NCBI RefSeq assembly: GCF_003385845.1
Contig: NZ_QRDJ01000007.1
Location: 62,001 to 126,000 of the forward strand
Direction: 5' to 3'
DNA from: Kushneria indalinina DSM 14324
GTDB lineage: Bacteria > Pseudomonadota > Gammaproteobacteria > Pseudomonadales > Halomonadaceae
DNA: 64,000 bases
Part shown: positions 690 to 61,932 of the stretch, one piece after another
Layout of the letters: every line of letters starts with the position of its first letter
How positions within the stretch are numbered: position 1 is the stretch's first letter
The notes under the pieces: generated by a model
Told to the model about the DNA's origin: nothing
Databases searched by the model: none
The model's input: only the letters and a program-made list of their open reading frames with translations
Program-made: the position numbers and the translations under genes

Positions 690-2051
690 ATGTCCCCTGC
701 TCGATCTCTCACCTTTCCACGGCGCCTGCACGACGTCTGGCAACTCTCATGGCCCATCATCATCTCCAATGCCAGCGTGCCGCTGCTGGGGCTGGTGGAT
801 ACGGCGGTGATCGGCCATTTGCCTCACGCGCGCTACCTGGCCGCCGTGACCCTGGGCAGCACGCTGTTCAGCTTTCTGTTCTGGGGATTTGGCTTTCTGC
901 GCATGGGTACCACCGGCCTGACCTCGCAGGCCGCCGGGCGCGGCGAGGATCAGACCATGCGCAATCTGCTCGGGCAGTCCCTGCTCATTGGTGTGATCAT
1001 CGGGCTTGCCCTGATCGCACTGTCGGCGCCGCTGATCAACTTTGGCCTCTGGCTTTTGCAGCCTGACAGCGAGGCGACCGCGCGGCTGGCCGCCGATTAC
1101 GCCCATGTTCGTATCTTCTCCGCCCCCGCGGTGTTGATGAATTACGCCATCATCGGCTGGTTTCTGGGGCGTCAGAATGCCCGCGTCACCCTGCTTTTGA
1201 TGCTGATCACCAACAGCGTCAACATCGTGCTGGATATTGTGCTGGTGGTGGGTCTCGACATGAACGTCAAGGGCGTGGCCACCGCCTCGCTGATCGGTGA
1301 TTACACGGCGCTGGCCTTCGGACTGTGGCTGGTACGACGGGAACTGAAAACCCTGAGTGGTCGGTTCGACAGCACACCGCTCAAGCGTCTCAAGGCCTAC
1401 GGTGAGCTCTTTCGCGTCAATCGTCACCTGTTCGTACGCACTCTGTGTCTGCTGTTTGCGATGGCCTTTTTTACCTCCCAGGGCGCGCAGCTGGGCGATC
1501 AGACACTGGCTGCCAATGCCATCCTGATGCAGCTGGTCATGATGGTGTCCTACGGCCTGGACGGGTTTGCCAACGCCGCCGAAGCCCTGACCGGCAAGGC
1601 GGCCGGCAGACGCGACTGGCACGAATTTGCGCTGTCGGTGCGCGCCTGTGCGGTGTTCTCACTGTTCACGGCGGTCGTGGCAGCGCTGGCCTTCAGCGCT
1701 GGCGGCCCCTGGCTGATCGCGCGTCTGACCGATATCGAGGCCATTCGTCAGCTGGCCGGGCACTACCTGCCATGGCTGGTCGTCATGCCGCTGATTGCCG
1801 TGTGGAGCTATCTGCTCGATGGCGTATTCATTGGCACCACGGACACCCGGGCCATGCGCGACACCATCATTTTGGCCCTGCTGGTCTACCTGCCCGTCTG
1901 GTGGCTGACCCAGCCACTGGGCAATCACGGGCTGTGGCTGGCCTTTACCACATTCACTCTGGTGCGCTCGCTGGGGCTGGGTCTGATGTATCTGATCAGA
2001 CGCAGGAGGCAGTGGGCGGACCCGACAAGCCACGGCCGTTCCAACGAATAA
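690..2051 (+). CDS. dinF: MATE family efflux transporter, DinF-like
   Basis: This is a 12-helix inner-membrane antiporter of the MATE superfamily, DinF branch, expected to export cationic or organic compounds using Na+ or H+. The N-terminal part has the family pattern WPIIISNASVPLLGLVDTAV, followed by regularly spaced hydrophobic segments over about 450 residues, the usual DinF length. The ATG at 690 gives a protein starting just before the first helix. An upstream in-frame ATG at 603 would add 29 unhelpful residues, so 690 is preferred, though neither start has a clear Shine-Dalgarno. The 295 bp upstream (395-689) hold no gene and presumably divergent promoters. The usual neighbour lexA is not present. 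The substrate cannot be told from sequence. Confidence 0.85.
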   Translation: MSPARSLTFPRRLHDVWQLSWPIIISNASVPLLGLVDTAVIGHLPHARYLAAVTLGSTLFSFLFWGFGFLRMGTTGLTSQAAGRGEDQTMRNLLGQSLLIGVIIGLALIALSAPLINFGLWLLQPDSEATARLAADYAHVRIFSAPAVLMNYAIIGWFLGRQNARVTLLLMLITNSVNIVLDIVLVVGLDMNVKGVATASLIGDYTALAFGLWLVRRELKTLSGRFDSTPLKRLKAYGELFRVNRHLFVRTLCLLFAMAFFTSQGAQLGDQTLAANAILMQLVMMVSYGLDGFANAAEALTGKAAGRRDWHEFALSVRACAVFSLFTAVVAALAFSAGGPWLIARLTDIEAIRQLAGHYLPWLVVMPLIAVWSYLLDGVFIGTTDTRAMRDTIILALLVYLPVWWLTQPLGNHGLWLAFTTFTLVRSLGLGLMYLIRRRRQWADPTSHGRSNE

Positions 2052-2140
2052 ACCCCAGGAAAGCGCGATTTTCGTGAATTAGCGCCTGATGTCCTTTGGC
2101 CTAATATGCAGCCTTGCGCCTCTTAACGCTGGACGGTGGA

Positions 2141-5053
2141 ATGGCAACGCTCAAGACAGCCCTTAAACATCTGCTGGTCGGCCCGCTGGGCAGCCTCTTC
2201 TGGGCGCTGCTGGGACTCATGATCCTGCTGACCATATTGCCGGGCGAGCAGGTCTTCGGCCTGATGCAGAGTTATCTGGGATTTCATTCCCTGGTGGAGC
2301 TGACCTGCGTCATCGTGGCCGTACTGGCCACGCTTGCCATTTTCAACAGCTATCGAACGCTCTCCACCCAGTATCTGTGCGTCGGCGCCCTGCTGGGCCT
2401 GTCGGCCGTGATGGACAGCCTGCATCTGTTCTCCATGCCCGGCATGGCGGATTTTTTCTCGCCCAACACGCTGAACAAGGCGATCTACTTCTGGCTGCTG
2501 GGACGTCTGAGTGCCATCAGCGCCCTGCTGCTGCTGTCGCTTTCCCATCTATCGGATCAGCCCGCCCGGTTTTCGCGCCTGATATTGATGCTGTTTCTTG
2601 CCGCAGGCGCTCTGGCACTGGTGGCCATCTTCGGTTATCCGCAGCATCTGCCGGAGCTTTATATCCCCGAAAAGGGTCTGACGTCGCTCAAGATCGCACT
2701 CGAATGGGGGCTGGCCGGCATAAGCGTGCTTGCCGGTATCATCCTGCTGCGCTCTTCGCGTCTGCGTCAGCAGCGCGACCGCGAGATGCTCACGGTCGCG
2801 GCCTGGGTCACGGCGCTGGCCGAGATCTGCTTTACGCTCTACGGCTCGGCCAACGATGAGTTCAACGTGCTGGGCCATATCTACAAGGCCATCTCCTACC
2901 TGCTGATCTTTCACGCACTCTTTTTAAGCCATCTGCGCTACCCCTGGCAGGCCCTGAACGATGCCAGAGCCCGTCTGGCCAGCCAGGAGCAGCGCTGGAA
3001 TCTCGCGCTGGCAGGCTCCAGCACGGGCGTCTGGGACATGGATATCGGTGCCGATCGCGTCTTTACCTCGTCTCATCTTCATCAGATGCTGGGCTATCGC
3101 AATGGCGAATTGCCGCGCGCGGCCAGTGCCTGGCGCGAACGTCTTGTCCATCCGGATGACCGTGACCGCGTGCTTGATACCTTTGAAGCCCATATGACGG
3201 GCAAAAGCCAGGGCTGGCACTGCGAGTACCGAATGCTGGATGCACGAGGGCGATGGCGCTGGGTACAGTCCAACGGTCAGATAATTGCCTCTGAAGATGA
3301 AGAGGGCGCCATACGTGTGGTAGGCACCACCATCGACATTCAGACGCGTCGGGAGCAGGAACAGTATCTGGCAGAAACCCGAAAGCGTTTGCAGACCCTG
3401 TTTGATACTGCCCCCATTGGCATGCTGGTCATCGACACCCAGGGCGTGGTGCATCAGCACAACCGCATGCTGGATCAGCTGCTGGCGCCACACGAGATCG
3501 TTATCGGTGAGGAAAGCATCTGGCAGTGGGTAAGCGCCGAGGATCACGACCACGTCCTGCACCACTGGCAACAATGGCAGCAACAGGACGCCACGCAGCG
3601 GCGCGAAAGCACCTGGCACCGGGAGCTTCGCATGACGCTATATGGCCATGGACGCAGCAAACATCAGCCACTCTGGACAGAATGGGTGGTCGCGGCGCTG
3701 CCGGAGGAGCATCTTTACCTGCTGCTGATCGAGGATATCAGCGCCCGCAAGCAGGCCACCGAACTGCTGATCGAAAACGCGAGCCTTTATCGCAGCACCT
3801 TTGAAAGCGGCAATGCCATCAAGCTGCTCGTGGATCCTGAAAACGGTGTCATCGTCGATGCCAACATGGCCGCCAGTGACTACTACGGGTATTCGCTGGA
3901 CACGCTCAAGACGCTGACCATGCAGAACATCTCGCTGACCCCTCAGGCCATCCGCCGCGAGCGCGCCCAACAGACACTGGTACAGCACGAAGGGCATTTC
4001 GAGACGCGCCATCGCATGGGCAATGGCGCCACACGCGATGTCGAAGTGTTTGTGGCCCCCGTGGTGATCGGCGGCAGAACGCTGATCTACGAGATGGTCC
4101 ATGACATCACGGCGCGCAAGGAGGCCGAGCAGGGGCTGGTGCTGCTCAATCAGCGTCTGTCCCGCGACGGGTTGTATCGTCAGCATCTCAATGAGCTGAG
4201 TACGCATTTGTTCGAGCTCAACGACATCACCGGGGTCGTGCCGCTGCTGGAGGCGTATCTGCCCCGCTGCTTTCCCGATACCAGTGGCGAGCTGGCCCTG
4301 CGCATCGAGGAGCTGGATCAGGCCCACTGCATCACCTGGGGCAGCGCGCTGGCCGCGCAGCCGGCCTTTGAATATCGCCAGCGTCTGACCACGACCACCG
4401 GTGCCCTGGGGCGCATGACCCTGCAGGCGGCCCCGCTGGATGACGAGGACCGCCATCGTCTCGAGCGCATGACCGATGAAACCGCCCGCATTCTGACGCT
4501 GACGCTGATCAACCTGCGCCTGCGCAGCCAGCTGACCGATCACGCCTATCGTGATGCGCTGACCGGGCTGTATAACCGGCGCTATCTCAACGAAACGCTG
4601 CCCCGATTGCTTGAAAATGCCGGCGATAAGTCACCGGTCTCGCTGGCCCTGCTGGATCTGGATCATTTCAAGCGACTCAACGACACCTGGGGGCACGACG
4701 CTGGTGACCAGGTGCTGGTGGCGCTGGGCGAGATTCTGACCCAGCGACTGCGCGCCACGGACATCTCGTGTCGCTACGGCGGCGAGGAGTTCATCGTGGT
4801 CCTGCCGGGGGCCAACGCCGGCATTGCCATGATGCGTCTCAACGAAGTCCTTGAGCAGTTCGGTCAGTGGTCCATGACGGTTGGCGATGACCGGATCGAG
4901 CATCTCACGTTCTCGGCCGGATTGATCGAAGCGCCACGCCAGGGCTGTGACATGAGCACCCTGATCGAACTGGCCGATCAGGCCCTTTACAGCGCCAAGC
5001 ATGCCGGCCGCGGGCGCGTGCACCAGGCCGATCAGGCCCTGCCGCTGACCTGA
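2141..5053 (+). CDS. Membrane-bound PAS-GGDEF diguanylate cyclase
   Basis: This protein of about 970 residues has a multi-helix N-terminal membrane sensor region (about residues 10-270, resembling MASE3-type sensors). Three PAS-like modules follow (about 280-400, 405-540, 555-670; the first has the PAS_3-type ending GTTIDIQTRREQE), then a linker and a C-terminal GGDEF domain. The active-site loop reads RYGGEEF, a functional variant. RATD sits five residues before it, so the allosteric c-di-GMP inhibition site (RxxD) is kept. It should make c-di-GMP from two GTP in response to a membrane or cytoplasmic cue. The ATG at 2141 is preferred over a TTG at 2114. It stands alone, and the signal sensed is unknown. 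Confidence 0.9.
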   Translation: MATLKTALKHLLVGPLGSLFWALLGLMILLTILPGEQVFGLMQSYLGFHSLVELTCVIVAVLATLAIFNSYRTLSTQYLCVGALLGLSAVMDSLHLFSMPGMADFFSPNTLNKAIYFWLLGRLSAISALLLLSLSHLSDQPARFSRLILMLFLAAGALALVAIFGYPQHLPELYIPEKGLTSLKIALEWGLAGISVLAGIILLRSSRLRQQRDREMLTVAAWVTALAEICFTLYGSANDEFNVLGHIYKAISYLLIFHALFLSHLRYPWQALNDARARLASQEQRWNLALAGSSTGVWDMDIGADRVFTSSHLHQMLGYRNGELPRAASAWRERLVHPDDRDRVLDTFEAHMTGKSQGWHCEYRMLDARGRWRWVQSNGQIIASEDEEGAIRVVGTTIDIQTRREQEQYLAETRKRLQTLFDTAPIGMLVIDTQGVVHQHNRMLDQLLAPHEIVIGEESIWQWVSAEDHDHVLHHWQQWQQQDATQRRESTWHRELRMTLYGHGRSKHQPLWTEWVVAALPEEHLYLLLIEDISARKQATELLIENASLYRSTFESGNAIKLLVDPENGVIVDANMAASDYYGYSLDTLKTLTMQNISLTPQAIRRERAQQTLVQHEGHFETRHRMGNGATRDVEVFVAPVVIGGRTLIYEMVHDITARKEAEQGLVLLNQRLSRDGLYRQHLNELSTHLFELNDITGVVPLLEAYLPRCFPDTSGELALRIEELDQAHCITWGSALAAQPAFEYRQRLTTTTGALGRMTLQAAPLDDEDRHRLERMTDETARILTLTLINLRLRSQLTDHAYRDALTGLYNRRYLNETLPRLLENAGDKSPVSLALLDLDHFKRLNDTWGHDAGDQVLVALGEILTQRLRATDISCRYGGEEFIVVLPGANAGIAMMRLNEVLEQFGQWSMTVGDDRIEHLTFSAGLIEAPRQGCDMSTLIELADQALYSAKHAGRGRVHQADQALPLT

Positions 5054-5213
5054 TGACGGCAAGAGTTTCTCGACAGCTCATTGCGGCGCACCTCTCTTTG
5101 GTCGTAGAAAGCGCCGCGACAGGCTGACCCGGGATCCGTAACCGTCCGGACTGACAGGTAGAAAAGCCTGCGCTGATATAACGATGCCACGTTGGTCGCA
5201 TTGCCCATCCTGA

Positions 5214-5247
5214 TCGATTCAATCATTTTTTCTCTCGTTTCAATCAT
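5214..5247. promoter_or_regulatory. Paired operator-like repeats upstream of kdgT
   Basis: Two direct copies of TCGNTTCAATCAT lie at 5214-5226 (TCGATTCAATCAT) and 5235-5247 (TCGTTTCAATCAT), starting exactly 21 bp apart, about two helical turns. Three more copies occur before the kinase-dehydrogenase fusion gene (10866-11017). CG(T)TTC-containing repeats are typical of DeoR-family operators, and a DeoR gene ends this island. The 5054-5296 gap otherwise holds no gene. Confidence 0.55.
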
Positions 5248-5296
5248 CACGTCTGCGCTTTGCAGATATTTGTCATGATCAGCGGGAGACATGCCC

Positions 5297-6424
5297 ATGC
5301 GTTTGCTTGCCACGGTACAAAAGGTTCCAGGCGGTCTGATGGTGGTGCCGCTGATTCTTGGCGCAACGCTCAATACCATCGACCAGCTCCATCTGCCCTG
5401 GATTACGGCGGTTCTGCAGTGGCTGGGCGCCGGCCAGACCGACAGCGGCAATTATGAATTCTTGCGTATCGGCGGTTTTTCCCAGGAGCTGTTCAAGGAC
5501 GGCGCCCTGGTGTTGATCGCACTGTTTCTGTTCTGCTCGGGCAGCCAGATGAATCTGCGCGTCGGTGGCAAGGCGCTCAAGAAGGGGCTGCTGCTGGTCA
5601 GTGCCAAGTATCTGACCGGTCTTGCCGTGGGTCTGGCGCTGGGCTTCATGTTTGATCCCATCAACGGCCTGTTGGGCCTGTCGACCGTGGCCATCATCGC
5701 CGCCATGACCAACGGCAACGGCGGTATGTATGCCGCACTCACCAGCCAGTACGGCAACCGCTCCGACACCGGCGCCGTAGCGATTCTCTCGCTCAACGAT
5801 GGCCCCTTCTTCACGCTCATGTCGCTGGGGCTTTTAGGCTCGCAGTTCCCCATGATCGCCTTTATTGCCGTGCTGCTGCCCATTGCGCTGGGCATGCTGC
5901 TGGGCAATCTGGATGAAGACGTTCGAACCTTTCTCAAACCCGGCGAAATCCTGCCGGTGCCGTTTTTCGCCTTCGCTCTTGGCGCCAACATGAATCTGGC
6001 GGTGTTCTTCAACCCGCAGGTCGTGGGCGCGGGCCTCTTGCTGGGCGTGATGACCACGGTGCTGACCGGTGCCGCCGGCATTTTGATTTTCAGGGCCTGT
6101 CGTGAACGCAGCGTGATCGCCCCGGTGGCCGAAGCCACCACGGCCGGCAATGCGGCGGGCACCCCGGCGGCCATCGCCGCAGCCGCCGCCGTAGCAGCCA
6201 GCTCCGGGATGATGAGTGCTGCAGAGGCCCAGAGCTACCAGGACCTGGTCAACGTGGCAACCTCACAGATCTCGATTGCCACCCTGACCACGGCCATTCT
6301 CGGCCCGGCGGCCGTGATCATCATCGACCGCTGGCAGCGCCGACGCGGTATCGATGGCACGCTGGAAGACGAGCCGGCACGGACAGCCGACAGGGTGGAT
6401 GCCTCTTCCGAACCCGGCGCGTAA
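5297..6424 (+). CDS. kdgT: 2-keto-3-deoxygluconate permease family transporter
   Basis: This is a KdgT-family inner-membrane symporter for sugar acids. The N-terminus MRLLATVQKVPGGLMVVPLILGA lines up residue for residue with the start of E. coli KdgT (KIPGG followed by a hydrophobic helix). For that reason, and because of the GGGAG at 5283-5287, the ATG at 5297 is preferred to the ATG at 5291. Conserved pieces include MTNGNGGMYAAL and LSLNDGPFFTL. At 375 residues it is longer than the enteric protein (about 327), with an Ala-rich stretch near residues 285-310 and a polar tail. It heads the lar operon, so I infer that it imports the acid sugar this island degrades, which need not be KDG. Confidence 0.87.
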   Translation: MRLLATVQKVPGGLMVVPLILGATLNTIDQLHLPWITAVLQWLGAGQTDSGNYEFLRIGGFSQELFKDGALVLIALFLFCSGSQMNLRVGGKALKKGLLLVSAKYLTGLAVGLALGFMFDPINGLLGLSTVAIIAAMTNGNGGMYAALTSQYGNRSDTGAVAILSLNDGPFFTLMSLGLLGSQFPMIAFIAVLLPIALGMLLGNLDEDVRTFLKPGEILPVPFFAFALGANMNLAVFFNPQVVGAGLLLGVMTTVLTGAAGILIFRACRERSVIAPVAEATTAGNAAGTPAAIAAAAAVAASSGMMSAAEAQSYQDLVNVATSQISIATLTTAILGPAAVIIIDRWQRRRGIDGTLEDEPARTADRVDASSEPGA

Positions 6425-6503
6425 GCTACGCTGACAACCCTTATGCCATGACATCCGTTATAGCCTGTGCCGGCCCCGTGCCGGCATGACGTCGGGAGCG
6501 CAC

Positions 6504-7793
6504 ATGAAGACCTCACTGTTGTATGGCCGGGGCGAGCTGGCACTCGAAGTGCCGGATGACGCCTTTATCGTGACACCGCCGGCACAGCCGGCCCTTGAGT
6601 CACCGCAGCAGGCCGTTCGAGACGCCCTCGACGCCCCCATCGACACGTCGCCACTCAGGGATATGGTGCAGGCCACCGACCGGGTGGCGATCGTGATCAG
6701 CGACATCACCCGCCCTACCCCCAATCACGTGCTGGTGCCCCTTCTGATCGAGACGCTCGGCCACGTGCCGCACGAGCAGTTCGTCATCATCAACGGCACC
6801 GGCACCCACCGTGACCAGACCGAAGAAGAACTGCGCACCATGCTGGGCGACTGGGTGGTAGATCACATCGAGATCATCAACAACCACTGCGACAACTACG
6901 ATGAGCTGGTCAACGTTGGCGACAACAGCTTCGGCTGCCCGTCATGGCTCAACAAGCGCTATGTCGAGGCCGATTTTCGCATCGTTACCGGCTTTATCGA
7001 GCCGCACTTCTTTGCCGGCTTTTCCGGCGGTCCCAAGGGCATCATGCCCGGCATTGCCGGGCTTGAGACCATTCTGACCTTTCATAACGCCCGCATGATC
7101 GGCGACCCCCGCTCGACCTGGGGCAACATGGCAGACAATCCGCTGCAGGCCATGACGCGCGAGATTAACGCGCTGTGCCCGCCGCACTTCATGCTCAACG
7201 TCACGCTCAATCGCGACAAGGCGATCACGAAGGTCTTTGCCGGCGACATGACGCAGGCGCACCGCCGGGGCTGCGACCATGAGCTCAAGCACGCCATGGT
7301 GCGCTGCGACGAGCGCTTTGACGTGGTGATTACGGGCAATTCCGGCTATCCGCTGGACCAGAATCTCTATCAGGCCGTCAAGGGCATGAGCGCGGCGCAC
7401 AAGATCGTTCGCGAAGGCGGCACCATTCTCATGGCCGCCGAGTGCTCGGATGGTCTGCCCGACCACGGCCGCTTTGCCGAAATTCTCGGCATGGCCGACT
7501 CGCCGCAAAAGCTTTTGGAGATGATCGAAAATCCGGAATTCAGCATGCTCGATCAGTGGCAGGTTCAGAAACAGGCCGTCATCCAGTGCTGGGCGGATGT
7601 CATGCTCTACTCCACGCTCAGCGATGACCAGGCGCAGCTGGCCATGATGACGCCGGTCCATGATCTTGAGGAGACGCTTGCGACCCTCAAGGCGCGTTAT
7701 GGCGAGAACATGCGCGTGGCCGTCATGCCGCTGGGGCCGCTGACAGTGCCCTACGTGGATGACAATGCCACCGTGGAAGACGACAACGCCTGA
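6504..7793 (+). CDS. larA: LarA-family nickel-pincer 2-hydroxyacid racemase/epimerase
   Basis: This 429-residue protein belongs to the lactate racemase superfamily, which inverts C2 of 2-hydroxyacids by hydride transfer to the nickel-pincer nucleotide (NPN). All key positions of Lactobacillus LarA are kept with an offset of 5-6: R70 (DITRP), H102 (GTHRDQ), H168 (EPHFFAG), K178 (GGPKGIMPG, the Lys that carries NPN), H194 (FHNARMIG, nickel ligand), K293 and W352. It should therefore be active. Known LarA homologues act on lactate, malate, phenyllactate, 2-hydroxyglutarate or D-gluconate. With KdgT before it and a tetronate kinase-dehydrogenase after it, a sugar-acid epimerase is more likely than a lactate racemase. 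The start at 6504 has GGGAG five bases upstream; an ATG at 6486 is less likely. Confidence 0.92.
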
Positions 7794-7809
7794 ACGTCAG
7801 GAGAGTAAC

Positions 7810-8721
7810 ATGAGCGATCAGCTGATTGCCCGCCAAATGGTCAACGCCGCCCCCCGATCCGGTCCCGAGCTTGAGCACGCGGTCAGCGACGGCCGGGCGC
7901 TGGATCAAAAGCTTGAAACGCTGCGCACGATGCTGCGCGACATGGGGGATGTGGTGGTGGCCTTCTCGGGCGGGGTGGACAGCACCTTTTTGCTGGCCGT
8001 GGCGCTGGACACCCTGGGCACGGACCGGGTACTGGCGGTGACGGCAGACTCCGAGTCCTACCCCTTCGAGGAGCTCGACGCCGCGCGAACGCTCGCCGAG
8101 CAGCTGGGCGCGCCGCACCGGGTAATCGAGACCTCCGAGATCGCCATCCCCGGCTACGCCGACAACGATGCCCGGCGCTGCTACTACTGCAAGACGGGCC
8201 TTTTTACCCATCTGGCGCCCGTCATGGTCGAGGCCGGCTTTCACAACATCGTCTTCGGTCTGATTGCCGATGATGACGGCGAGCACCGCCCGGGCACCGT
8301 GGCCGCCCGTGAGCACGGCGTACGTGGCCCGCTGCATGAAGCCGATCTCTACAAGGCCGAAATTCGCGAACTCTCCCAGGCGATGGGGCTTCCGACCTGG
8401 AACAAGCCCTCGCTGGCGTGCCTCTCCTCCCGGGTGGCCTACGGCGAGCGCATTACGCTTGAAAAGCTTGAGCGCATTGCCGAAGCCGAGCGACGCATAC
8501 GCCGCATTGGTGTGACGCAGCTGCGCGTGCGCCACCACGGCGAACTGGCACGAATCGAGGTCACACCCGAGGACATGCCGCTGCTGCTGGAACATCACGA
8601 CTGGGTGGTCGAGACGCTGACCGAGCTGGGCTATGCCTGGGTGACGCTGGATCTGGCCGGCTACCGCAGCGGCAGCATGAACCGGCTGCTGCGTCATGAG
8701 GAGGACACACTGCATGTCTGA
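7810..8721 (+). CDS. larE: LarE, ATP-dependent sacrificial sulfur transferase for NPN synthesis
   Basis: LarE inserts sulfur into pyridinium-3,5-biscarboxylate mononucleotide, the second step of nickel-pincer cofactor synthesis. It has the PP-loop SGGVDST (residues 53-59), the family motif [11 protein letters not shown] (C124, C127) and PSLACLSSR (C204). C204 lies in the stretch where family members carry the sulfur-donating or cluster-binding cysteine; this assignment is from memory of the family and is not certain. Its length of 303 residues is slightly above the usual ~275 because of an extra N-terminal segment of about 30 residues. The start at 7810 has AGGAGA upstream, 16 bp after larA. 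Its end overlaps larB by 8 bp, so translation is probably coupled. Confidence 0.92.
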
Positions 8722-9447
8722 CCGGCCCCCCGAGCTCATTTCCGATCTGGGGTTTGCCCGCGTCGATCATGACCGCGAAGCCCGCAACGGCGTGCCGGAA
8801 GTGGTCTTTGGCGAAGGCAAGCGCGCCGAGCAGATCAGTGCGATCGTGGCCCGCCTGCTCGCGCGCCATCAGCGCGCGTTGGTGACCCGCGTCGATGAGG
8901 CGCGCGCCGAAGCCGTCCTGCGCGATCATCCTGACGGCCACTACGACCCTGTCAGCCGCCTGCTCCACTGGGGCCGGGCACCGCAGACGCTGCCCGGCAG
9001 TGCGGCGGTGGTCTGCGCCGGCACCTCGGATCTGCCGGTCGCCGAAGAAGCCGCGCAGACGCTGGAATGGCTGGGCGTTCACGCCCCGCGGCTGAGTGAT
9101 GTGGGCGTGGCCGGCATCGACCGGCTGCTGGCGCATCGTCAGGCGCTGACCCGCGCCGATGTCCTGATCGTGGTGGCCGGTATGGAGGGCGCCCTGCCCA
9201 GCGTCGTGACCGGCCTGGTCAACAGCCCCGTCATCGCGGTGCCGACCTCGGTGGGCTATGGCGCCAGCCTGCAGGGCGTGACGGCTCTTTTGGGCATGCT
9301 CTCGGCCTGCGCCACCGGCATGAGCGTGGTCAATATCGACAACGGCTTTGGCGCCGCCTGGCAGGCGGCCGGCATTCTGCGCCTGGCCGCGCGCGGCGTA
9401 CAGGACACGCCCCTTCACTTTGCCTCGCCACAGGACACGTCCGGATC

Positions 9448-9451
<4 letters not shown>
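8714..9451 (+). CDS. larB: LarB, nicotinate adenine dinucleotide carboxylase/hydrolase for NPN synthesis
   Basis: LarB carboxylates NaAD at C5 of the ring and cleaves it, the first step of NPN synthesis. The C-terminal half (about residues 95-230) is the PurE/AIR-carboxylase-like domain with [25 protein letters not shown] and [16 protein letters not shown], then PTSVGYGAS. The length of 245 residues is normal. The ATG at 8714 lies inside the end of larE (8 bp overlap), and the stop overlaps the larC start by ATGA. The order larA-larE-larB-larC thus forms one tightly coupled block, different from the larABC1C2-E order of Lactobacillus. Confidence 0.92.
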
Positions 9452-10773
<1,322 letters not shown>

Positions 10774-10865
10774 GCCCTGTCGTGCCACACCCTGAGCCAT
10801 AAGGGTGACAACGACTCCCGGCGGGCGGCGACGATGCCTGCCCCGCCGGGCGGTGATCGTTATCG

Positions 10866-11017
10866 TCGTTTCGATCACGCCCGCCAACCGGCCGCCTCCG
10901 AAAAATTATTCTTTTATTTTCATCAGCATGAGTAAAATGTAGACCTTTTGAAAACGATAGAACGCTTGCCCTTTTTTATCGCTTCGATCATTTTACCTCT
11001 TAAAATTATCGAAACGA
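10866..11017. promoter_or_regulatory. Three operator-like repeats before the kinase-dehydrogenase fusion
   Basis: The motif TCGNTTCRATMAY occurs at 10866-10878 (TCGTTTCGATCAC), 10979-10991 (TCGCTTCGATCAT) and, inverted, at 11005-11017 (read on the minus strand as TCGTTTCGATAAT). The last two face each other across the AT-rich stretch just upstream of the start at 11041. A looser relative (GAAAACGATAG) is at 10949-10959. The same motif precedes kdgT, so one regulator, probably the DeoR protein at 14362-15141, likely controls both units. The 10774-11040 gap contains no other gene. Confidence 0.55.
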
Positions 11018-11040
11018 TCAAAAGGCCTGAGGTTACTGCC

Positions 11041-13347
11041 ATGCCCCGCTCTGCCGATGCCTCAAACCGCCCCCGTCACCGCACCAGGCTGTTGATCCTG
11101 GCCGATGACCTGACCGGCACCGCCGACTCGGCGGTGACCTGCAGCAGTGCGGGGCTGACCACGCAGGTTCTTTTAAACGCCACCGCCGAGGCCCCGGCCG
11201 ACGTCATCGCCATCGATACCGACTCCCGGGGCTGTGCGCCGGCGCAGGCCGCACGGCGCAGTCGCGACTGTCTCGAGCACTGGCAGGGTCGACATGCGTC
11301 TCTCTACAAGAAGATGGACTCGACCCTGCGCGGCAACGTGGCCGCCGAGCTTGCCGCACTGATCCCGCTGGCCGGCATGGCCATCGTGGCACCGGCCTTT
11401 CCGGCCACCGGTCGCACGACGCGTCAGGGTCGCCAGTATCTCGATGACTGTCCGGTCGAGGCCTGCGAGGTATGGACCAACGAGGGGATGACCGGCCGTG
11501 CCGACCTGGTCGCCATGCTGAAACAGACCGGCCTTGAGACCGCGCTTTTGACGCTTGATGACCTGCACCAGCCGCCTGAGGCCGTTACGCAGCGTCTGGC
11601 GAGCTGGCAGCGCGAGGGCGTTCAGGCCGTGGTCTGCGATGCGCTGACCGGGGACGATCTTGCCCGCATCGCGCGCGCCTCGGTGCCGCTTTCCAGCGTT
11701 TTCTGGGCAGGCTCGGCAGGGCTTGGCGAGGCGCTGCCTGAAGCCCTCGGGCTGCTGCCCGCCACGACAGCCACCGGCTCGCCGGCGACAGTTCATCCGA
11801 CCGGGCCGACACTGATCGTGGTCGGCAGCATGAGCGGCGTCTCTCACCGTCAGGCCGATGCCCTTCAGACGCTGGCCGGAGCGTCGCTGGAAGTTGTATC
11901 GCTGGAAGCTGCCCTGCTGCGGGCCACTGTTTCAGGCAATGAGCATGACGCCCTTCAGCGGCGTATCGAACAGGCGCTGCGCTCAGGTCGAGACGTGCTG
12001 GTGCGCCTGGTGCAGGGCGAGGATCGCAACACGCAGGAAGCATCGCAGCTCAGCGACCGCCTCGGCGAGCTGCTCTCGCCCCTGCTGCCTCACGCCTCCC
12101 GTCTGATCGCCACGGGAGGTGCCACGGCTCGCGCCATCCTGACCGCCGCCGACATTGTCGAGCTCACACTTCTGGATGCCCCGGATATCGGCATGGCACG
12201 CATGACAGGCCCTGGCCCGACGTCGCTCGAGGTCATCACCAAGGCCGGCGGATTCGGCGACCCGGACGCGCTGGCCCGCCTGTGGCGCGCCGGACGCTCC
12301 CGGCAGACGGCCACCACTCTACCAGGAACCCCACACATGACAGACCGCCCCGTTATCGGCATTACCATGGGCGACGCCGCGGGCGTTGGCCCTGAAATCA
12401 TCGTCAGAAGTCTGGCCCACGACTCGGTGCACCAGCAGTGTCGGGCACTGGTCATCGGTGACGCCGGCCGCCTTCGCGACGCTGCCACGCGTCTGGGCAG
12501 CCCGGTGACGATTGCCGCCATCGAAGAGCCGAATCAGGCCCGCTTCGAGCCCGGCGTTATCGACTGCATTGATCTGGCCCTGATCCCCGAAGATCTGCCC
12601 TACGGCGAGGTCTCGCCCGTGGCCGGTGACGCGGCCTATCAATATATCGCCCGCACGGTGACACTGACCCAGCAGGGCCAGCTCGATGCCATCTGTACGG
12701 CACCGCTCAACAAGGCGGCCCTGCATGCCGGGGGGCATATTTTCCCCGGACACACCGAGCTGCTGGCCCATTTGACCGGCACCGAAGAGGTGTCGATGAT
12801 GCTGGTGACGCCGAAAATGAAGGTGATCCACGTCACCACTCATTTAGGGATTATCGATGCCATCGCCCGTATCGAGCCGGGGCTGGTCCAGCGCACCATC
12901 GAACGTGCTCACGAGACGCTGGCCCGCGCCGGTATCGACAACCCGCGCATCGCGGTGTGCGGCATCAATCCGCATGCCGGCGAGAACGGGCTATTTGGCT
13001 ATGGTGAGGAGGAAGAGAAGATCATGCCCGCCATCGAGGTGCTGCGCGCGCGCGGCTGGAATGTGGAAGGCCCGCTGCCGGCGGATACGCTCTTTTTCCG
13101 CGCCGGACGCGGTGACTTCGACTGCGTGGTCGCCATGTATCATGATCAGGGGCACGGCCCGGTCAAGGTGATGGGGCTGGAGGCCGGCGTCAACGTCACG
13201 GTTGGCCTGCCGGTCGTGCGCACTTCGGTGGACCACGGCACGGCGTTTGATATTGCAGGCCGCGGCATCGCCGATGAACGCAGCATGCTTGAAGCGCTGC
13301 GCCAGGCGGTAGAGCTTGCCAGCCGCCACGATGCCGGGGCAGCCTGA
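11041..13347 (+). CDS. Fused four-carbon acid-sugar kinase (DUF1537) and PdxA2-type 4-phosphate dehydrogenase
   Basis: This 768-residue chain joins two enzymes. Residues about 15-425 are a DUF1537 kinase (RLLILADDLTGTADSAV; KKMDSTLRGNV; C-terminal TGGATARAIL). Residues 433-768 are a PdxA-family dehydrogenase (ITMGDAAGVGPEI, FPGHTELLAHLT, GINPHAGENGLFGYGEEEE, YHDQGHGPVKVMG with its metal histidines). YHDQGH rather than YHDQGL is typical of PdxA2, not vitamin B6 PdxA. In D-threonate breakdown the kinase makes D-threonate 4-phosphate and PdxA2 oxidises and decarboxylates it to DHAP plus CO2; here both steps would sit on one chain. The start at 11041 has GAGG upstream; an ATG at 10948 would be inside the operator region. 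An ATG at 12337 preceded by AGGAA could give free PdxA2. Confidence 0.88.
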   Translation: MPRSADASNRPRHRTRLLILADDLTGTADSAVTCSSAGLTTQVLLNATAEAPADVIAIDTDSRGCAPAQAARRSRDCLEHWQGRHASLYKKMDSTLRGNVAAELAALIPLAGMAIVAPAFPATGRTTRQGRQYLDDCPVEACEVWTNEGMTGRADLVAMLKQTGLETALLTLDDLHQPPEAVTQRLASWQREGVQAVVCDALTGDDLARIARASVPLSSVFWAGSAGLGEALPEALGLLPATTATGSPATVHPTGPTLIVVGSMSGVSHRQADALQTLAGASLEVVSLEAALLRATVSGNEHDALQRRIEQALRSGRDVLVRLVQGEDRNTQEASQLSDRLGELLSPLLPHASRLIATGGATARAILTAADIVELTLLDAPDIGMARMTGPGPTSLEVITKAGGFGDPDALARLWRAGRSRQTATTLPGTPHMTDRPVIGITMGDAAGVGPEIIVRSLAHDSVHQQCRALVIGDAGRLRDAATRLGSPVTIAAIEEPNQARFEPGVIDCIDLALIPEDLPYGEVSPVAGDAAYQYIARTVTLTQQGQLDAICTAPLNKAALHAGGHIFPGHTELLAHLTGTEEVSMMLVTPKMKVIHVTTHLGIIDAIARIEPGLVQRTIERAHETLARAGIDNPRIAVCGINPHAGENGLFGYGEEEEKIMPAIEVLRARGWNVEGPLPADTLFFRAGRGDFDCVVAMYHDQGHGPVKVMGLEAGVNVTVGLPVVRTSVDHGTAFDIAGRGIADERSMLEALRQAVELASRHDAGAA

Positions 13348-13393
13348 ATCACGGGCCCGGCAACAGAGACTCATCCACTTTGGGGAGATAGAC

Positions 13394-14320
13394 ATGGCGA
13401 TCATCGGTTTTGCAGGACTCGGATTCATGGGTGCCGGTATGGCCGGCAATATTCTCAAGGCAGGCTACCCACTCAGGGTGCTGGCGCATCGTAACCGCCA
13501 GCCCATCGATGATCTCGTCGCCAAAGGTGCCGAGGAGGCCGACAACGCGGCGGCGCTGGGCGCCGAGTGCGACATCATCTTTCTCTGCGTGACCGGGGCG
13601 CCGCAGGTTCAGGCGCTGATCGAGGGGGATGAAGGGATTCGCGCCGGCGCCCGGAGCGCGGGCCGTCAGGGCCTGGTCATCGTCGACTGCTCGACCTCCG
13701 AGCCGACAGTGACCCGCGAGCTTGCCGCCTCGCTGAGCGAGGATGGCATCACGCTGATGGATGCCCCGCTGGGCGGCACGCCCACCCAGGCCGACGCCGG
13801 AGAACTCCAGGCCATTGTCGGCGGCGACGAGTCGACTCTCGAGGCCATACGTCCGGTGCTGGAGAGCTGGACCGCCAGAATTTTGCACGTCGGCCCGGTC
13901 GGTGCCGGGCACACCATGAAGCTGCTCAACAACTTCCTGTCCATGGGTTATGGCGCCATCTTCACCGAAGCATTGACCATCGGTGCCAAAGCCGGCATCA
14001 CGCCGGAGACGTTTGATAGCGTCATTCGCGGCTCGCGCATGGATTGCGGCTTCTATCGCACCTTCTTCCAGTACGTGCTGGAGCGTGACCGCGACGCCCA
14101 TCGATTTACCCTGACCAACGCCCACAAGGATACCCGTTACCTGGCCTCACTTGCCGAGGCGATGAACGTGAACGCCGGCGTCGCCAGGGCCGTTCGGGAT
14201 CTTTATGCCAGTGCAGAAGCCCAGGGGGATGGCGAAAAATTCGTGCCGGAGCTTTCCGATATCTTTGCCGCCCGCCATCAGACCTCCCTGAGCCAGACGC
14301 CGAACACGGCCGGGAACTGA
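13394..14320 (+). CDS. NAD-binding hydroxyacid dehydrogenase, LtnD/3-hydroxyisobutyrate dehydrogenase family
   Basis: This 308-residue beta-hydroxyacid dehydrogenase has the Rossmann motif GFAGLGFMGAGMAGN at the N-terminus. The substrate-binding stretch is DAPLGGTPTQADAGEL (usual DAPVSGG, so the Ser is replaced). The catalytic-lysine motif is GAGHTMKLLNNF. L-threonate 2-dehydrogenase (LtnD) and tartronate semialdehyde reductase belong here. Its place after the DUF1537-PdxA2 fusion makes an acid-sugar dehydrogenase likely. It could oxidise C2 of a tetronate, giving a second entry into the kinase, but the substrate is not proven. GGGGAG at 13382-13387 supports the ATG at 13394. It is 46 bp after the fusion gene. 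Confidence 0.82.
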   Translation: MAIIGFAGLGFMGAGMAGNILKAGYPLRVLAHRNRQPIDDLVAKGAEEADNAAALGAECDIIFLCVTGAPQVQALIEGDEGIRAGARSAGRQGLVIVDCSTSEPTVTRELAASLSEDGITLMDAPLGGTPTQADAGELQAIVGGDESTLEAIRPVLESWTARILHVGPVGAGHTMKLLNNFLSMGYGAIFTEALTIGAKAGITPETFDSVIRGSRMDCGFYRTFFQYVLERDRDAHRFTLTNAHKDTRYLASLAEAMNVNAGVARAVRDLYASAEAQGDGEKFVPELSDIFAARHQTSLSQTPNTAGN

Positions 14321-14361
14321 TAGAGTCATGTCGTGATGTCTGTTTGCTTCAAGGAGTCAGG

Positions 14362-15141
14362 ATGAAGGTTGCCCGCCGTCGCGAGGCCATGCTGAAAGCG
14401 GTGCTCTCCGGCATGACCGAGGTAGAGACCCTGTGTGCCCATTTTGGCGTCTCGGAAGCGACCGTGCGGCGCGACCTGGGGGCGCTGGCCGAACAGGGCC
14501 TGATCGTGCGGACCTATGGCGGCGCCGCCCACATTGGCGCCCGCGAGCCGGAGCTGACACTGTCACAGCGCCAGTCGCACCAGGAAGGCGTCAAGGCACA
14601 GCTGGCGGCGCTGGCACTCGAGCAGATCAGGGATCACGACACGCTGCTGCTGGATGGCGGTACCACCACCGCCGCACTGGCTGCAGTGCTGCACCAGCGT
14701 CAGGGGCTGCATGTCATTACCAACAATCTGGCCGCGCTATCGGCGCTCGAGCGGCTTCCCGAAGGCCGGGTGACCGTGCTGGGAGGTGATGTGCGCATGT
14801 CCAGCATGACCACCATGGGCCCTGCTGCCCAGGCCATGCTGGCGCGACTGTCGGTCGATCGGGTTTTCGTGAGCGCTGATGGGGTCACCGCCGATCTGGG
14901 TCTGTGCGAGGCCAGCCCCGAACAGGCCTGGCTCAAGGAGCTGATGATTGGTCGCAGTGCCAGGTGCTATGTCATGGCCGATCATACCAAGCTGGGGCGA
15001 ACCAGCCAGCAGCACTGGACGCCCTTGCCGGCGGCATGGACGCTCATCACTGATGCCATTGATGAGCAGGTTCTGGCCCCGTTTCGCCAGTACAACGTTC
15101 GTGTACTGTCCCTTGCCGCATCATCCAACACACTGGCGTAG
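14362..15141 (+). CDS. DeoR-family transcriptional regulator
   Basis: The N-terminal winged helix-turn-helix reads EVETLCAHFGVSEATVRRDL, followed by the family hallmark YGGA. The C-terminal DeoR effector domain includes LLDGGTTTAALA and VITNNLAALSAL. These regulators usually repress sugar or acid-sugar catabolism and respond to a phosphorylated intermediate. AAGGAG at 14351-14356 fixes the start at 14362. It is co-oriented with the dehydrogenase 41 bp upstream and is probably in its operon. It is the best candidate to bind the CGTTTC repeats at 5214-5247 and 10866-11017. Confidence 0.9.
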   Translation: MKVARRREAMLKAVLSGMTEVETLCAHFGVSEATVRRDLGALAEQGLIVRTYGGAAHIGAREPELTLSQRQSHQEGVKAQLAALALEQIRDHDTLLLDGGTTTAALAAVLHQRQGLHVITNNLAALSALERLPEGRVTVLGGDVRMSSMTTMGPAAQAMLARLSVDRVFVSADGVTADLGLCEASPEQAWLKELMIGRSARCYVMADHTKLGRTSQQHWTPLPAAWTLITDAIDEQVLAPFRQYNVRVLSLAASSNTLA

Positions 15142-50133: not shown

Positions 50134-51423
50134 TTATGCTGATTGCGGCGACCAGTCGATCGGACCGGGGTCGTCTTCCAGATCAAAGTGCGCTTCACCG
50201 CTGAGGTGGTTGAGAATCACCGCCGAACGCCAGGCCATCAGCGACAGCTGCGGCTCGGCGATACCGTAGCGGGTGCGTCCGGCATTGACGGCATAGATGC
50301 GACTGTCGCCGCCGCCCTGCCAGTCGAGCAGAAAATGATTCCCCATGGTCGGCTCGCCGCGCGCATCACGCCCGATCCGATCGGCCAGCGGGGCCATGCA
50401 CTCGGGCAGACTTGATTCAAAGCCGGTGGCAAAAATGACCACATCGGCGTCAAAGTGCTCAAGCACGCCGGTGGTGCCGTGTCGGGCCTCCAGCACGAAG
50501 GCCCCCCCCGCCCGCGTCATGTCCACCGCCTCACGGTGGGGCAATAGATGCGCCCAGCGCGGCTCGTGCATCACATCAAAGCGGTGATAGAGCGTCTGAT
50601 AGATCTCGGTCAGCGCCGCGGGCGTGATGCCGTCGCTGGCGTATTTCTGCGCACTGACCTCGCGCCGGCGCACGTCATCATCCAGCTCGGCAAACTGCGT
50701 GGTATAGCCGGGCGTGAAGTACTCGTTGGTGAAGGCGGTCTCGTCCAGCGGCTGGAAGTTGCGCCGACGCGACAGCCAGTGCAGCGATTTCGGCGGCCCC
50801 CAGTGGCCGCGCAGGGCGTTGATGAAGATATCCGCTCCGCTCTGGCCGCCGCCGACAATCACCACGCGCTGGTGAGTGAAATCGCGCGCGCGCCAGGCAA
50901 TCGATTCGGCGTGCAGGCAGTGCTCGCTCTGATGATCGCGGGCAAAGGCCGGCAGCCAGGGCGCCTTGCCGCCGCCCAGACACAGATGCCGCGCCCGGAA
51001 GGTGCGGGTATCGGTCTGAAGCCGGAAGTGCTCACCGTCATGATCGATCTCGCGCACGCTGTGATTGAGCCAGACGTTATCAAGCCCCTCGGCGGCCCAG
51101 CGCAGGTAGTCGGAAAACTCTGCGCGCGAGACCGTGGAGAGCTCGGCGTTCAAAAAGCGATAAAAGCGCCGATGCTGGACCAGATAATTGAGAAACGACC
51201 AGCGGCTGGTCGGGTCGACCGCCGTGACCAGATCCTTGAGAAAACCGGTCTGCAGATGCGTATCCGGCAGCATCATGCCCTCATGCCAGGCGTAGCGCGC
51301 CTGACGGTCGAAAAAGCGCAGGGAGAGCGCCGGCAGATGGTCGGCGCCAAGTGCAGCAATGCTTAAATTGAACGGACCGGCGCCGATGCCGGCCAGATCC
51401 AGAAGCTCGGGGGTATCAGCCAT
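50134..51423 (-). CDS. iucD: IucD/PvdA-family amine N-hydroxylase (probably L-lysine N6-monooxygenase)
   Basis: This 429-residue flavin N-hydroxylase makes the N-hydroxy-amine of a hydroxamate siderophore, using FAD, NADPH and O2. It has the FAD motif DLAGIGAGPFNLSIAAL, the family stretch WHEGMMLPDTHLQTGFLKDLV, the NADPH motif VVIVGGGQSGADIF and VIFATGFESSLP near the end. Gene order (A-B-C-D) points to lysine, as in aerobactin, but ornithine or a diamine cannot be excluded by eye. The ATG at 51423 is preferred over a TTG at 51432. It is 21 bp after iucC. Confidence 0.88.
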   Translation of the reverse strand: MADTPELLDLAGIGAGPFNLSIAALGADHLPALSLRFFDRQARYAWHEGMMLPDTHLQTGFLKDLVTAVDPTSRWSFLNYLVQHRRFYRFLNAELSTVSRAEFSDYLRWAAEGLDNVWLNHSVREIDHDGEHFRLQTDTRTFRARHLCLGGGKAPWLPAFARDHQSEHCLHAESIAWRARDFTHQRVVIVGGGQSGADIFINALRGHWGPPKSLHWLSRRRNFQPLDETAFTNEYFTPGYTTQFAELDDDVRRREVSAQKYASDGITPAALTEIYQTLYHRFDVMHEPRWAHLLPHREAVDMTRAGGAFVLEARHGTTGVLEHFDADVVIFATGFESSLPECMAPLADRIGRDARGEPTMGNHFLLDWQGGGDSRIYAVNAGRTRYGIAEPQLSLMAWRSAVILNHLSGEAHFDLEDDPGPIDWSPQSA

Positions 51424-51444
51424 GTTGGGCAATATCTCGGGTGA

Positions 51445-54269: not shown

Positions 54270-54272
54270 GGT

Positions 54273-56048: not shown

Positions 56049-56174
56049 TGGGCACTCCTGTGATGGGTCGCATTGACCAGCGTGTTCTGACGTGGGGGCA
56101 AGCATAGCCGATCGTGCCGGCGCCTGCGCCGGGCCTGTGAAGCCACCCGGGAAGGTCCTCCTGTCAGCACAAAT

Positions 56175-56199
56175 GATTTTGATAATGCTTCTCATTTGG
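56175..56199. promoter_or_regulatory. Fur box in the divergent siderophore promoter
   Basis: GATAATGCTTCTCATTT (56181-56197) closely follows the Fur consensus, preceded by TGATTTT that extends the 7-1-7 pattern leftwards. It lies between iucA (minus, start 56048) and entC (plus, start 56281) and can control both operons at once. Confidence 0.8.
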
Positions 56200-56280
56200 G
56201 CTAGAGTGGCGCTCTGTTACTGCACCGCATGACCTCTTCCGGTGCCCGTCCACTGACAACGCGACTTGTCAGGAGTCAAC

Positions 56281-57519: not shown

Positions 57520-57521
57520 TC

Positions 57522-59228: not shown

Positions 59229-59267
59229 CGGCTGCCGGCAGCGCTGAAGGATTACAGGAGAAGTATC

Positions 59268-61815: not shown

Positions 61816-61841
61816 GACGTTGGAGGCCTTTCAGAAGCATC

Positions 61842-61870
61842 AAAAAACCCGGCCATGTGCCGGGTTTTTT
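61842..61870. terminator. Strong bidirectional rho-independent terminator
   Basis: The stem AAAAAACCCGGC / GCCGGGTTTTTT with a 5-base loop (CATGT) lies between the convergent entA and receptor genes, with A- and T-runs suited to both directions. Confidence 0.93.
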
Positions 61871-61932
61871 AGTGCTTCAAAGGTGTTTTTCCATCCTGAA
61901 ACGCGGCGCCGGCATGACCGGCGCCGGATCAA

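What the first reader, a model, noticed from the sequence alone, without database searches (positions are those of the whole stretch)
5214..15141. Nickel-pincer LarA system built into a four-carbon acid-sugar pathway
One island holds a KdgT-type importer, LarA with a full NPN cofactor set (LarE, LarB, LarC), a DUF1537 kinase-PdxA2 fusion, a 3-hydroxyisobutyrate/LtnD-type dehydrogenase and a DeoR regulator. LarA keeps every catalytic position of lactate racemase, but no lactate gene is nearby. In known biology DUF1537 kinase plus PdxA2 degrades D-threonate to DHAP. D-erythronate is the C2 epimer of D-threonate, and C2 inversion is what LarA enzymes do. I propose a nickel-dependent tetronate 2-epimerase that lets one kinase-dehydrogenase serve both epimers (alternative: L-threonate/L-erythronate with the LtnD-like enzyme). 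I know of LarA homologues acting on gluconate, malate and others, but not on tetronates.
Basis: partly seen in the sequence, partly recalled or inferred. Interest (0 to 1): 0.8.

Follow-up and report, generated by a model that had tools for sequence, protein, structure and literature searches.

The report
Probable nickel glycerate racemase operon

Summary
An intact island at 5.2-15.1 kb encodes a KdgT-family permease, LarA, LarE, LarB, LarC, a DUF1537-kinase/PdxA fusion, a beta-hydroxyacid dehydrogenase and a DeoR regulator. The proposed substrate (tetronate) is less likely than glycerate. LarA has the lactate-racemase signature F-F-W-Q; LarAH43, with the same Q, is the published LarA best on glycerate among those whose table I read. 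The closest LarA relatives I found outside Halomonadaceae are in Bacilli: in 23 of 35 genomes larA lies within 2.5 kb, same strand, of a glycerate kinase gene; 1 of 35 has pdxA2 nearby. The window's KdgT groups with the LarA-linked KdgTs of those Bacilli. The published active-site residues are identical in both lineages. Relatives show the two units apart. Best reading: nickel-dependent uptake and racemisation of L-/D-glycerate, co-regulated with a four-carbon sugar-acid unit. A tetronate 2-epimerase, or an enzyme acting on both, is not excluded (about 0.2). No activity has been measured.

The parts
5211..5225 (.). operator-like palindrome TGATCGATTCAATCA upstream of kdgT
   Evidence: such a site upstream of kdgT in 13 of 13 Halomonadaceae loci
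5291..6424 (+). kdgT-family permease, probable glycerate (perhaps also tetronate) importer
   Evidence: PF03812 277 bits; 59-77% identical to KdgT next to larA in 14 of the 35 Bacilli loci (a further one, L063, 73%, is 4.5 kb off on the opposite strand; two others 36-38%; 18 none found); tree
6504..7793 (+). larA, nickel-pincer 2-hydroxyacid racemase, probable glycerate racemase (F175 F176 W358 Q359 in LarA1 numbering)
   Evidence: NF033504 532.7 bits over cut-off 460; residues; tree
7810..8721 (+). larE, sulfur transferase of NPN synthesis
   Evidence: TIGR00268 342.8/150
8714..9451 (+). larB, NaAD carboxylase/hydrolase of NPN synthesis
   Evidence: NF033503 284.9/175
9448..10773 (+). larC, nickel insertion protein, one ORF, with a long His-rich insert
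   Evidence: TIGR00299 199.7/90, NF052512 144.3/50; PF01969
10976..10990 (.). operator-like site TTATCGCTTCGATCA (one mismatch) upstream of the kinase-PdxA unit
11006..11020 (.). second operator-like site TTATCGAAACGATCA (one mismatch) upstream of the kinase-PdxA unit
11041..13347 (+). DUF1537 kinase fused in frame to a PdxA-family dehydrogenase (PdxA part from about 12337, where an internal ATG is kept)
   Evidence: PF07005, PF17042, PF04166; one open frame also in G002 and G007; below D-threonate-specific cut-offs
13394..14320 (+). beta-hydroxyacid dehydrogenase of a divergent subfamily (DAPLGGTP where family members have DAPVSGG; that family motif is recalled, and seen in L093)
   Evidence: PF03446/PF14833; best PDB sequence match tartronate semialdehyde reductase 1vpd; motif
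14362..15141 (+). DeoR-family regulator, probable owner of the operator
   Evidence: PF00455, PF08220

Best explanation
The island is a regulon for short sugar acids, made of two units under one DeoR repressor. Unit A (kdgT-larA-larE-larB-larC), closest to a gene set of Bacilli, imports glycerate through KdgT. LarBCE make the nickel-pincer cofactor, and LarA interconverts L- and D-glycerate by proton-coupled hydride transfer at C2. D-glycerate is then phosphorylated by the genome's own GlxK-type glycerate kinase (about 61 kb away) and enters glycolysis. Unit B (kinase-PdxA fusion plus dehydrogenase) phosphorylates a four-carbon sugar acid of the D-threonate type and oxidatively decarboxylates it towards dihydroxyacetone phosphate. 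Shown by computation: gene content, kinship of unit A, active-site identity, shared operator-like sites, separability of the units. Inferred: every substrate, the regulator-operator pairing, and the use of the distant glycerate kinase.
For: The closest LarA relatives I found outside Halomonadaceae (35 of 398 Bacilli genomes at E<=1e-90; 50-72% identical) have glxK on the same strand within 2.5 kb in 23 of 35, kdgT in 16, larE in 19, pdxA2 in 1; a CdaR-type regulator is in the stretch in 19 of 35. The LarA and KdgT trees both place Halomonadaceae among these Bacilli sequences; the nearest KdgT row is L070 (support 86/94), whose order cdaR< kdgT larA larE larB larC matches the window's. The 12 published catalytic and pocket residues are identical in all 13 Halomonadaceae LarAs and in the Bacilli LarAs except L088 (E at 359); L087 and L089 were incomplete. 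None of 18 lineage-specific substitutions lies within 2 residues of such a position. Other LarA branches are also tied to glycerate kinase: Rhodovastum kdgT-larA-larC-larE-larB-glycerate kinase, Rhizobium ruizarguesonis (kinase models hit below cut-off), G572 larA-glxK-larC-larE-larB. LarAH43, also with Q359, has 1.14e5 M-1 s-1 for glycerate, 8.3e4 for lactate, 1.7e2 and 8e1 for 4-deoxytetronates (PMC11770544). In S. acroporae (L004) unit A is whole beside a kinase that lacks its first 116 residues. A GlxK-type kinase is present in 13 of 13 Halomonadaceae genomes tested, own included.
Against: No glycerate kinase gene is in the island, and no operator site is in the stretch around the own glxK (L100). 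In all 13 Halomonadaceae loci or genomes with unit A, dtnK and pdxA2 matches are also present and the unit shares the operator, which would equally fit LarA feeding the kinase. 12 of the 35 Bacilli loci have no glxK in the stretch fetched. Q at position 359 does not decide by itself: LarA of Isosphaera pallida also has it (Q357) and works best on lactate and 2-hydroxybutyrate (PMC11851776), and LarAH43 favours glycerate over lactate only about 1.4-fold. KdgT kinship does not map cleanly to substrate: three LarA-linked KdgTs (L059, L080, L117) fall on the same side of the tree as the four dtnK-linked ones, and a KdgT can import D-threonate (PMC10079672). The Nramp-DapA pair is kept in only 2 of 13 loci with unit A but in both genomes with unit B and no larA, as if KdgT had replaced another importer of unit B.
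Confidence: 0.6

Rival explanations
1. One reading: LarA is a tetronate 2-epimerase (D-erythronate to D-threonate), so that one kinase-PdxA fusion serves both epimers, with KdgT importing tetronates.
For: Shared operator and constant co-occurrence with dtnK-pdxA2 in Halomonadaceae (13 of 13). An operon in a Bacilli genome with dtnK-pdxA2-glxK-larE-larA-nicO (L066). A KdgT can import D-threonate. Lactate-group LarAs epimerise 4-deoxytetronates slowly.
Against: Only 1 of 35 relatives has pdxA2 nearby, 23 have glycerate kinase. Same published pocket residues as the glxK-linked enzymes. F175/F176 make a smaller, less flexible pocket in LarA of L. plantarum (PMC11851776). Window KdgT is 37-39% identical to the two dtnK-linked KdgTs compared directly, 59-77% to LarA-linked Bacilli ones. 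Unit B exists without larA (G007, G027); the kinase is truncated beside an intact larA in L004.
Confidence: 0.18
2. LarA is a general short-chain 2-hydroxyacid racemase acting mainly on lactate.
For: NF033504 cut-off passed; signature F-F-W-Q is that of the lactate-racemase group; Isosphaera LarA with the same Q works best on lactate.
Against: Lactate permease and the main FMN-dehydrogenase match are on another contig; glxK or kdgT accompanies larA in 24 of 35 Bacilli relatives.
Confidence: 0.1
3. LarA and the dehydrogenase form one path: glycerate racemised, then oxidised at C3 to tartronate semialdehyde, apart from the kinase.
For: A 51-53% identical dehydrogenase lies between larA and larC in 5 of 6 Rhizobium/Phyllobacterium larA loci examined (the sixth, L055, lacks it); best PDB sequence match is tartronate semialdehyde reductase.
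Against: Substrate-binding motif differs from that family. The dehydrogenase stays with dtnK-pdxA2 where larA is absent (L096, L104), and no match lies in the stretches around either unit in G001 and G003.
Confidence: 0.07

Closest known systems
Lactate-group LarA enzymes (LarA1 of L. plantarum, LarAH43 of Enterocloster asparagiformis; PMC11770544)
   Same: same catalytic residues and pocket signature F-F-W-Q/E; LarAH43 has measured glycerate racemase activity
   Different: in the sections I read no kinase operon or physiological role was shown ('remains to be determined'); window LarA is about 36% identical to a L. plantarum LarA; LarAH43's sequence was not at hand
kdgT-dtnK-pdxA2-deoR D-threonate-type operons (Burkholderia, Caballeronia, Paraburkholderia; Re.KdgT, PMC10079672)
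   Same: same four gene families: KdgT, DUF1537 kinase, PdxA2, DeoR
   Different: no larA in those three loci; window KdgT is from another part of the KdgT tree; kinase fused to PdxA
glxK-kdgT-larA(-larE-larB-larC) gene sets of Bacilli (found here)
   Same: closely related LarA and KdgT; same gene order kdgT-larA-larE-larB-larC in L070 (which has no glxK beside it)
   Different: glycerate kinase and CdaR-type regulator instead of the kinase-PdxA fusion and DeoR
Otn pathway (LtnD-OtnK-OtnC-OtnI)
   Same: also for four-carbon sugar acids; also uses a DUF1537 kinase and a beta-hydroxyacid dehydrogenase
   Different: it is a separate cluster in this genome (L099)

Membership tests
LarA superfamily / nickel-dependent lactate racemase model NF033504 | score over curated cut-off and catalytic/NPN residues | tested here: met
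   532.7 against 460; R75, H108, H174, K184, H200 kept
LarA superfamily / nickel-dependent lactate racemase model NF033504 | racemises lactate | not testable with these tools
   no assay; lactate genes are elsewhere in the genome
Glycerate-linked LarA group (defined here by glxK neighbours) | LarA and KdgT group with LarA/KdgT of glxK-linked Bacilli loci | tested here: met
   the nearest single row, L070, has no glxK beside it
Glycerate-linked LarA group (defined here by glxK neighbours) | glycerate kinase gene in the same cluster | tested here: not met
   own glxK about 61 kb away, no operator site in its stretch
Gluconate 2-epimerase GntE | E, V, A, H at the four specificity positions | tested here: not met
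   F, F, W, Q found; signature from PMC11770544
D-threonate kinase (NF047819) | score over curated cut-off | tested here: not met
   178.8 against 450
D-threonate 4-phosphate dehydrogenase (NF002891) | score over curated cut-off | tested here: not met
   339.9 against 583; the general PdxA model TIGR00557 is passed, 370.9/290.35
L-threonate dehydrogenase LtnD (NF043037) | score over curated cut-off | tested here: not met
   134.2 against 350; the genome's other copy scores 453.4
D-threonate-type operon kdgT-dtnK-pdxA2-deoR | KdgT grouping with dtnK-linked KdgTs | tested here: not met
   37-39% identity to two of them; split 91/76 in the KdgT tree, where L101 has a very long branch
Tetronate 2-epimerase | C2 epimerisation of threonate/erythronate | not testable with these tools
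   needs assay
NPN cofactor synthesis set | LarB, LarC and LarE all present over cut-offs | tested here: met

The most novel reading that the evidence does not exclude
In Halomonadaceae a glycerate-racemase unit related to that of Bacilli was wired by a shared operator into a tetronate pathway and now works on both: one KdgT importer and one nickel epimerase invert C2 of any 2,3-dihydroxy acid with three or four carbons, so that L-glycerate and erythronate/threonate epimers are funnelled to two different kinases. It would be a nickel-pincer tetronate 2-epimerase; I saw none in print (4-deoxytetronates are known substrates, PMC11770544).
Probability: 0.2. Interest if true: 0.75.

Novelty: new variant of a known kind. 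Interest (0 to 1): 0.5.

Why it matters
The authors who measured glycerate racemisation by LarA enzymes wrote that its physiological significance remains to be determined in vivo (PMC11770544, Discussion). The operons found here (glycerate kinase, KdgT, LarA, NPN genes, in one case a nickel transporter) give that activity a likely role, L-glycerate use, and point to testable strains. My library searches found no paper holding the phrase 'glycerate racemase', and of 16 papers holding both 'LarA' and 'glycerate kinase' the 12 listed looked unrelated by title and start of abstract. The Halomonadaceae version also shows a nickel-cofactor unit joined to another sugar-acid unit's regulon.

Tried and rejected
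LtnD and the L-threonate route: rejected. GntE-type hexonate epimerase: rejected on the four signature residues. The fusion as the vitamin B6 enzyme: unlikely, since each of the five genomes of this genus tested has two other PdxA-family genes. A wider DeoR regulon: the pattern TKATYGNNNCRATCA has 12 places in the own genome, 3 of them in the island; of the other 9 I looked at 3 (L109, L112, L116), 6 were not examined. L109 and L112 lie inside long open frames, L116 at the edge of two overlapping short ones. The site in L109, L110 and L111 looked like a third target but lies within a roughly 620-codon frame in all three genomes. Structure prediction was not run: I compared the pocket residue by residue; nearness in space of the 18 differing positions was therefore not tested.

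Limits of the counts. The 35 Bacilli genomes are one per species and related, so 23 of 35 is not 23 independent events; by my own arithmetic (no call) chance would give about 0.1. LarA relatives were sampled in Gammaproteobacteria (369 genomes), Pseudomonadota (398), Bacilli (398), plasmids and one pattern-based scan of genome contigs; other phyla were not sampled. The first neighbour table failed to label larA in 4 loci (L057, L060, L061, L073) because of its open-frame picking; the tally replaces it. The LarA tree used 51 of 53 rows given (L087 and L089 dropped as too short) and left out L005, L007 and L008. The KdgT tree used 32 of 33 rows given (L064 dropped) and 8 of 13 Halomonadaceae loci; it warns of long branches (L101, L130, L080, L131). 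In one search the dehydrogenase query was off by one base; corrected from then on. G008, G012 and G035 appear by coordinates to be the genomes of L003, L007 and L004 and were not counted twice. The operator windows were chosen after I had seen the motif, with gene starts partly estimated; background 0.015 per window. Two upstream windows, L096 (Nramp) and L002 (dtnK, behind Nramp-dapA), hold no site; in L002 and L004 the site counted for the dtnK unit is upstream of Nramp. In the window and in L003 the dtnK-side sites have one mismatch.
Full report
What is there. The island at 5.2-15.1 kb holds eight intact genes on one strand: kdgT, larA, larE, larB, larC, then after a gap with two operator-like sites a DUF1537 kinase fused to a PdxA-family dehydrogenase, a beta-hydroxyacid dehydrogenase and deoR. 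LarA, LarB, LarC and LarE all pass NCBI's curated cut-offs. The D-threonate-specific models (kinase 178.8/450, dehydrogenase 339.9/583) and the L-threonate dehydrogenase model (134.2/350) are not passed. The window lies in a genome of 3.75 Mb. Its genus-mates include, by matching coordinates, the Kushneria sinocarnis record (L003 and G008); that it is Kushneria is my inference.

Active site. Mapped onto L. plantarum LarA, the window protein has R75, H108, H174, F175, F176, K184, H200, Y294, Q295, K298, W358 and Q359. PMC11770544 (I saw the abstract, the Results, the Discussion and passages) gives F, F, W, E/Q as the lactate-racemase signature and suggests that Q359 could explain the specificity of LarAH43 for glycerate. 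Its Table 2 gives LarAH43 1.14e5 M-1 s-1 for glycerate, 8.3e4 for lactate, and 1.7e2 and 8e1 for the two pairs of 4-deoxytetronate epimers. Threonate and erythronate themselves are not in that table. PMC11851776 (part 2 of 6 and passages) describes F175 and F176 as making a smaller, less flexible pocket. It also shows that Isosphaera LarA, with Q at the same position but L and M for the two phenylalanines, works best on lactate and 2-hydroxybutyrate, so Q359 alone does not name the substrate.

Relatives. Of 398 Bacilli genomes, 35 have a LarA match at E<=1e-90, 50-72% identical. I held the surroundings of all 35 and searched them with the window genes and with the glycerate kinase and CdaR-type regulator of S. 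gallinarum. glxK lies on the same strand within 2.5 kb of larA in 23 of 35; kdgT in 16 (17 anywhere in the stretch); larE 19; larB 14; larC 13 (14 anywhere); a CdaR-type gene anywhere in 19; a DUF1537 gene anywhere in 2; pdxA2 in 1. In 12 of 35 no glxK was found in the stretch. The one locus with pdxA2 (L066) reads: sigma-54 regulator, dtnK, pdxA2 (64% identical), glxK, larE, larA, nickel transporter. Thus a second lineage also joined the two units, there with the glycerate kinase present.

Kinship of unit A. The LarA tree places the 10 Halomonadaceae rows given in one clade (100/100) within a 22-row group of Bacilli and Halomonadaceae rows (100/99), 7 of which are glxK-linked. In the KdgT tree the 8 Halomonadaceae rows (100/98) and 14 LarA-linked Bacilli KdgTs form one group (100/99); the nearest row is L070 (86/94), whose gene order kdgT-larA-larE-larB-larC equals the window's but which has no glxK beside it. 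The four KdgTs from operons with dtnK and pdxA2 (L101, L119, L127, L128) fall on the other side of a 91/76 split; so do three other LarA-linked KdgTs (L059, L080, L117), and some of these branches are long. Two dtnK-linked KdgTs compared directly are 37-39% identical to the window's. This points to transfer of kdgT-larAEBC as a unit; the direction is inferred. None of the 18 substitutions that separate Halomonadaceae from glxK-linked LarA lies within two residues of a catalytic or pocket position.

Other branches. LarA of a distant branch (33-35% identical, F-M-W-Q) is also joined to glycerate kinase: Rhodovastum atsumiense regulator-kdgT-larA-larC-larE-larB-glycerate kinase and Rhizobium ruizarguesonis larA-larC-larE-larB-glycerate kinase (glycerate 2-kinase models matched below cut-off). 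G572 has larA-glxK-larC-larE-larB (35%, F-F-W-Q; glycerate kinase 497/168 bits). Against this, L054, L088, L093, L094 and L108, and the five Rhizobium/Phyllobacterium loci L120 and L122-L125, have no glxK match.

Separability. In two genus-mates whose LarA is 93% identical (G001, G003) kdgT-larAEBC-deoR stands alone and dtnK-pdxA2 lies about 240 and 255 kb away. G007 and G027 have no larA (G027 only a weak fragment match) but keep Nramp-like permease, DapA-like enzyme, dtnK, pdxA2, dehydrogenase and deoR; G027 also keeps a fragment of kdgT, probably a trace of a lost unit A. In S. acroporae (L004) the kinase lacks its first 116 residues while kdgT and larA are whole. So neither unit needs the other as a neighbour, but every one of the 13 Halomonadaceae loci or genomes with unit A also has dtnK and pdxA2 matches.

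Regulation. A palindrome TGATYGNNNCRATCA (up to one mismatch) lies within 320 bp upstream of kdgT in 13 of 13 loci, and upstream of the first gene of the dtnK unit (Nramp in L002 and L004) in 13 of 13, including the relocated units of G001 and G003. In the larA-less genomes it is present in L104 and absent in L096. In the window the degenerate form TKATYGNNNCRATCA occurs only at these promoters (4 strand-matches at 3 places; 0.10 expected). It is absent from the stretches around the own glxK (L100) and the otn cluster (L099).

Rest of the genome. A complete LtnD-OtnK-OtnC-OtnI pathway is elsewhere (L099, all over cut-offs). A GlxK-type glycerate kinase is about 61 kb from larA. The lactate permease and the main FMN-dehydrogenase match are on contig C4.

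The dehydrogenase. Its best PDB sequence match is tartronate semialdehyde reductase (1vpd), but the family's substrate-binding SGG is replaced by GGT/GGI here and ART/SRT in the nearest relatives. A 51-53% identical homologue sits between larA and larC in 5 of 6 Rhizobium/Phyllobacterium larA loci (L055 lacks it), while in the Sinorhizobium record opened it is next to sugar-transport genes. Its substrate is open.

Judgement. Glycerate is the best-supported substrate of LarA and KdgT (0.6). A tetronate role remains possible because of the regulon link (0.18 as sole substrate; 0.2 for the wider novel reading, which overlaps with it and with the main one). The finding is a new variant of a known kind. 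It is of moderate interest: the glycerate kinase-KdgT-LarA operons suggest a physiological setting for an activity that I have seen reported only in vitro.

Noticed in passing
L066 (G893:C1:2277000-2295000), 1727-10542: An operon in a Bacilli genome joins a PrpR-type sigma-54 regulator, dtnK, pdxA2, glycerate kinase, larE, larA and a NicO nickel transporter: both sugar-acid units in one operon, outside Halomonadaceae. Its pdxA2 is that genome's only PdxA-family match.
   Followed up: partly
L104 12028-12289 (G027): A fragment of kdgT (67-78% identical pieces) upstream of a Nramp-DapA-dtnK-pdxA2-dehydrogenase-deoR set without larA, suggesting loss of kdgT-larAEBC.
   Followed up: partly
L004 16815-17708: In Salinicola acroporae the DUF1537 kinase lacks its first 116 residues, directly behind dapA, while kdgT and larA are whole.
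   Followed up: partly
L096 10346-12708; L002 14506-16806; L004 14513-16790: An Nramp-family permease and a DapA-family enzyme precede dtnK-pdxA2 in relatives; kept in 2 of 13 loci with larA and in both without. Their substrate is unknown; an Nramp-like protein may carry an organic acid here.
   Followed up: partly
window 9660-9790: LarC has a long run of histidine and aspartate codons, possibly a nickel-holding insert.
   Followed up: no
window 12320-12340: The kinase-PdxA fusion keeps an internal ATG with an AGGA-like sequence before it, so PdxA might also be made alone; relatives have both fused and separate forms.
   Followed up: no
window 50134-63987: A probable siderophore region: lysine/ornithine monooxygenase, IucA/IucC-type synthetase, AMP-binding enzyme and a TonB-dependent receptor.
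   Followed up: no
L120, L122-L125 (Rhizobium, Phyllobacterium plasmids): A LarA branch with F-M-W-Q lies with the divergent beta-hydroxyacid dehydrogenase and, where annotated (L122, L123), a branched-chain-type ABC transporter; substrate unknown.
   Followed up: partly
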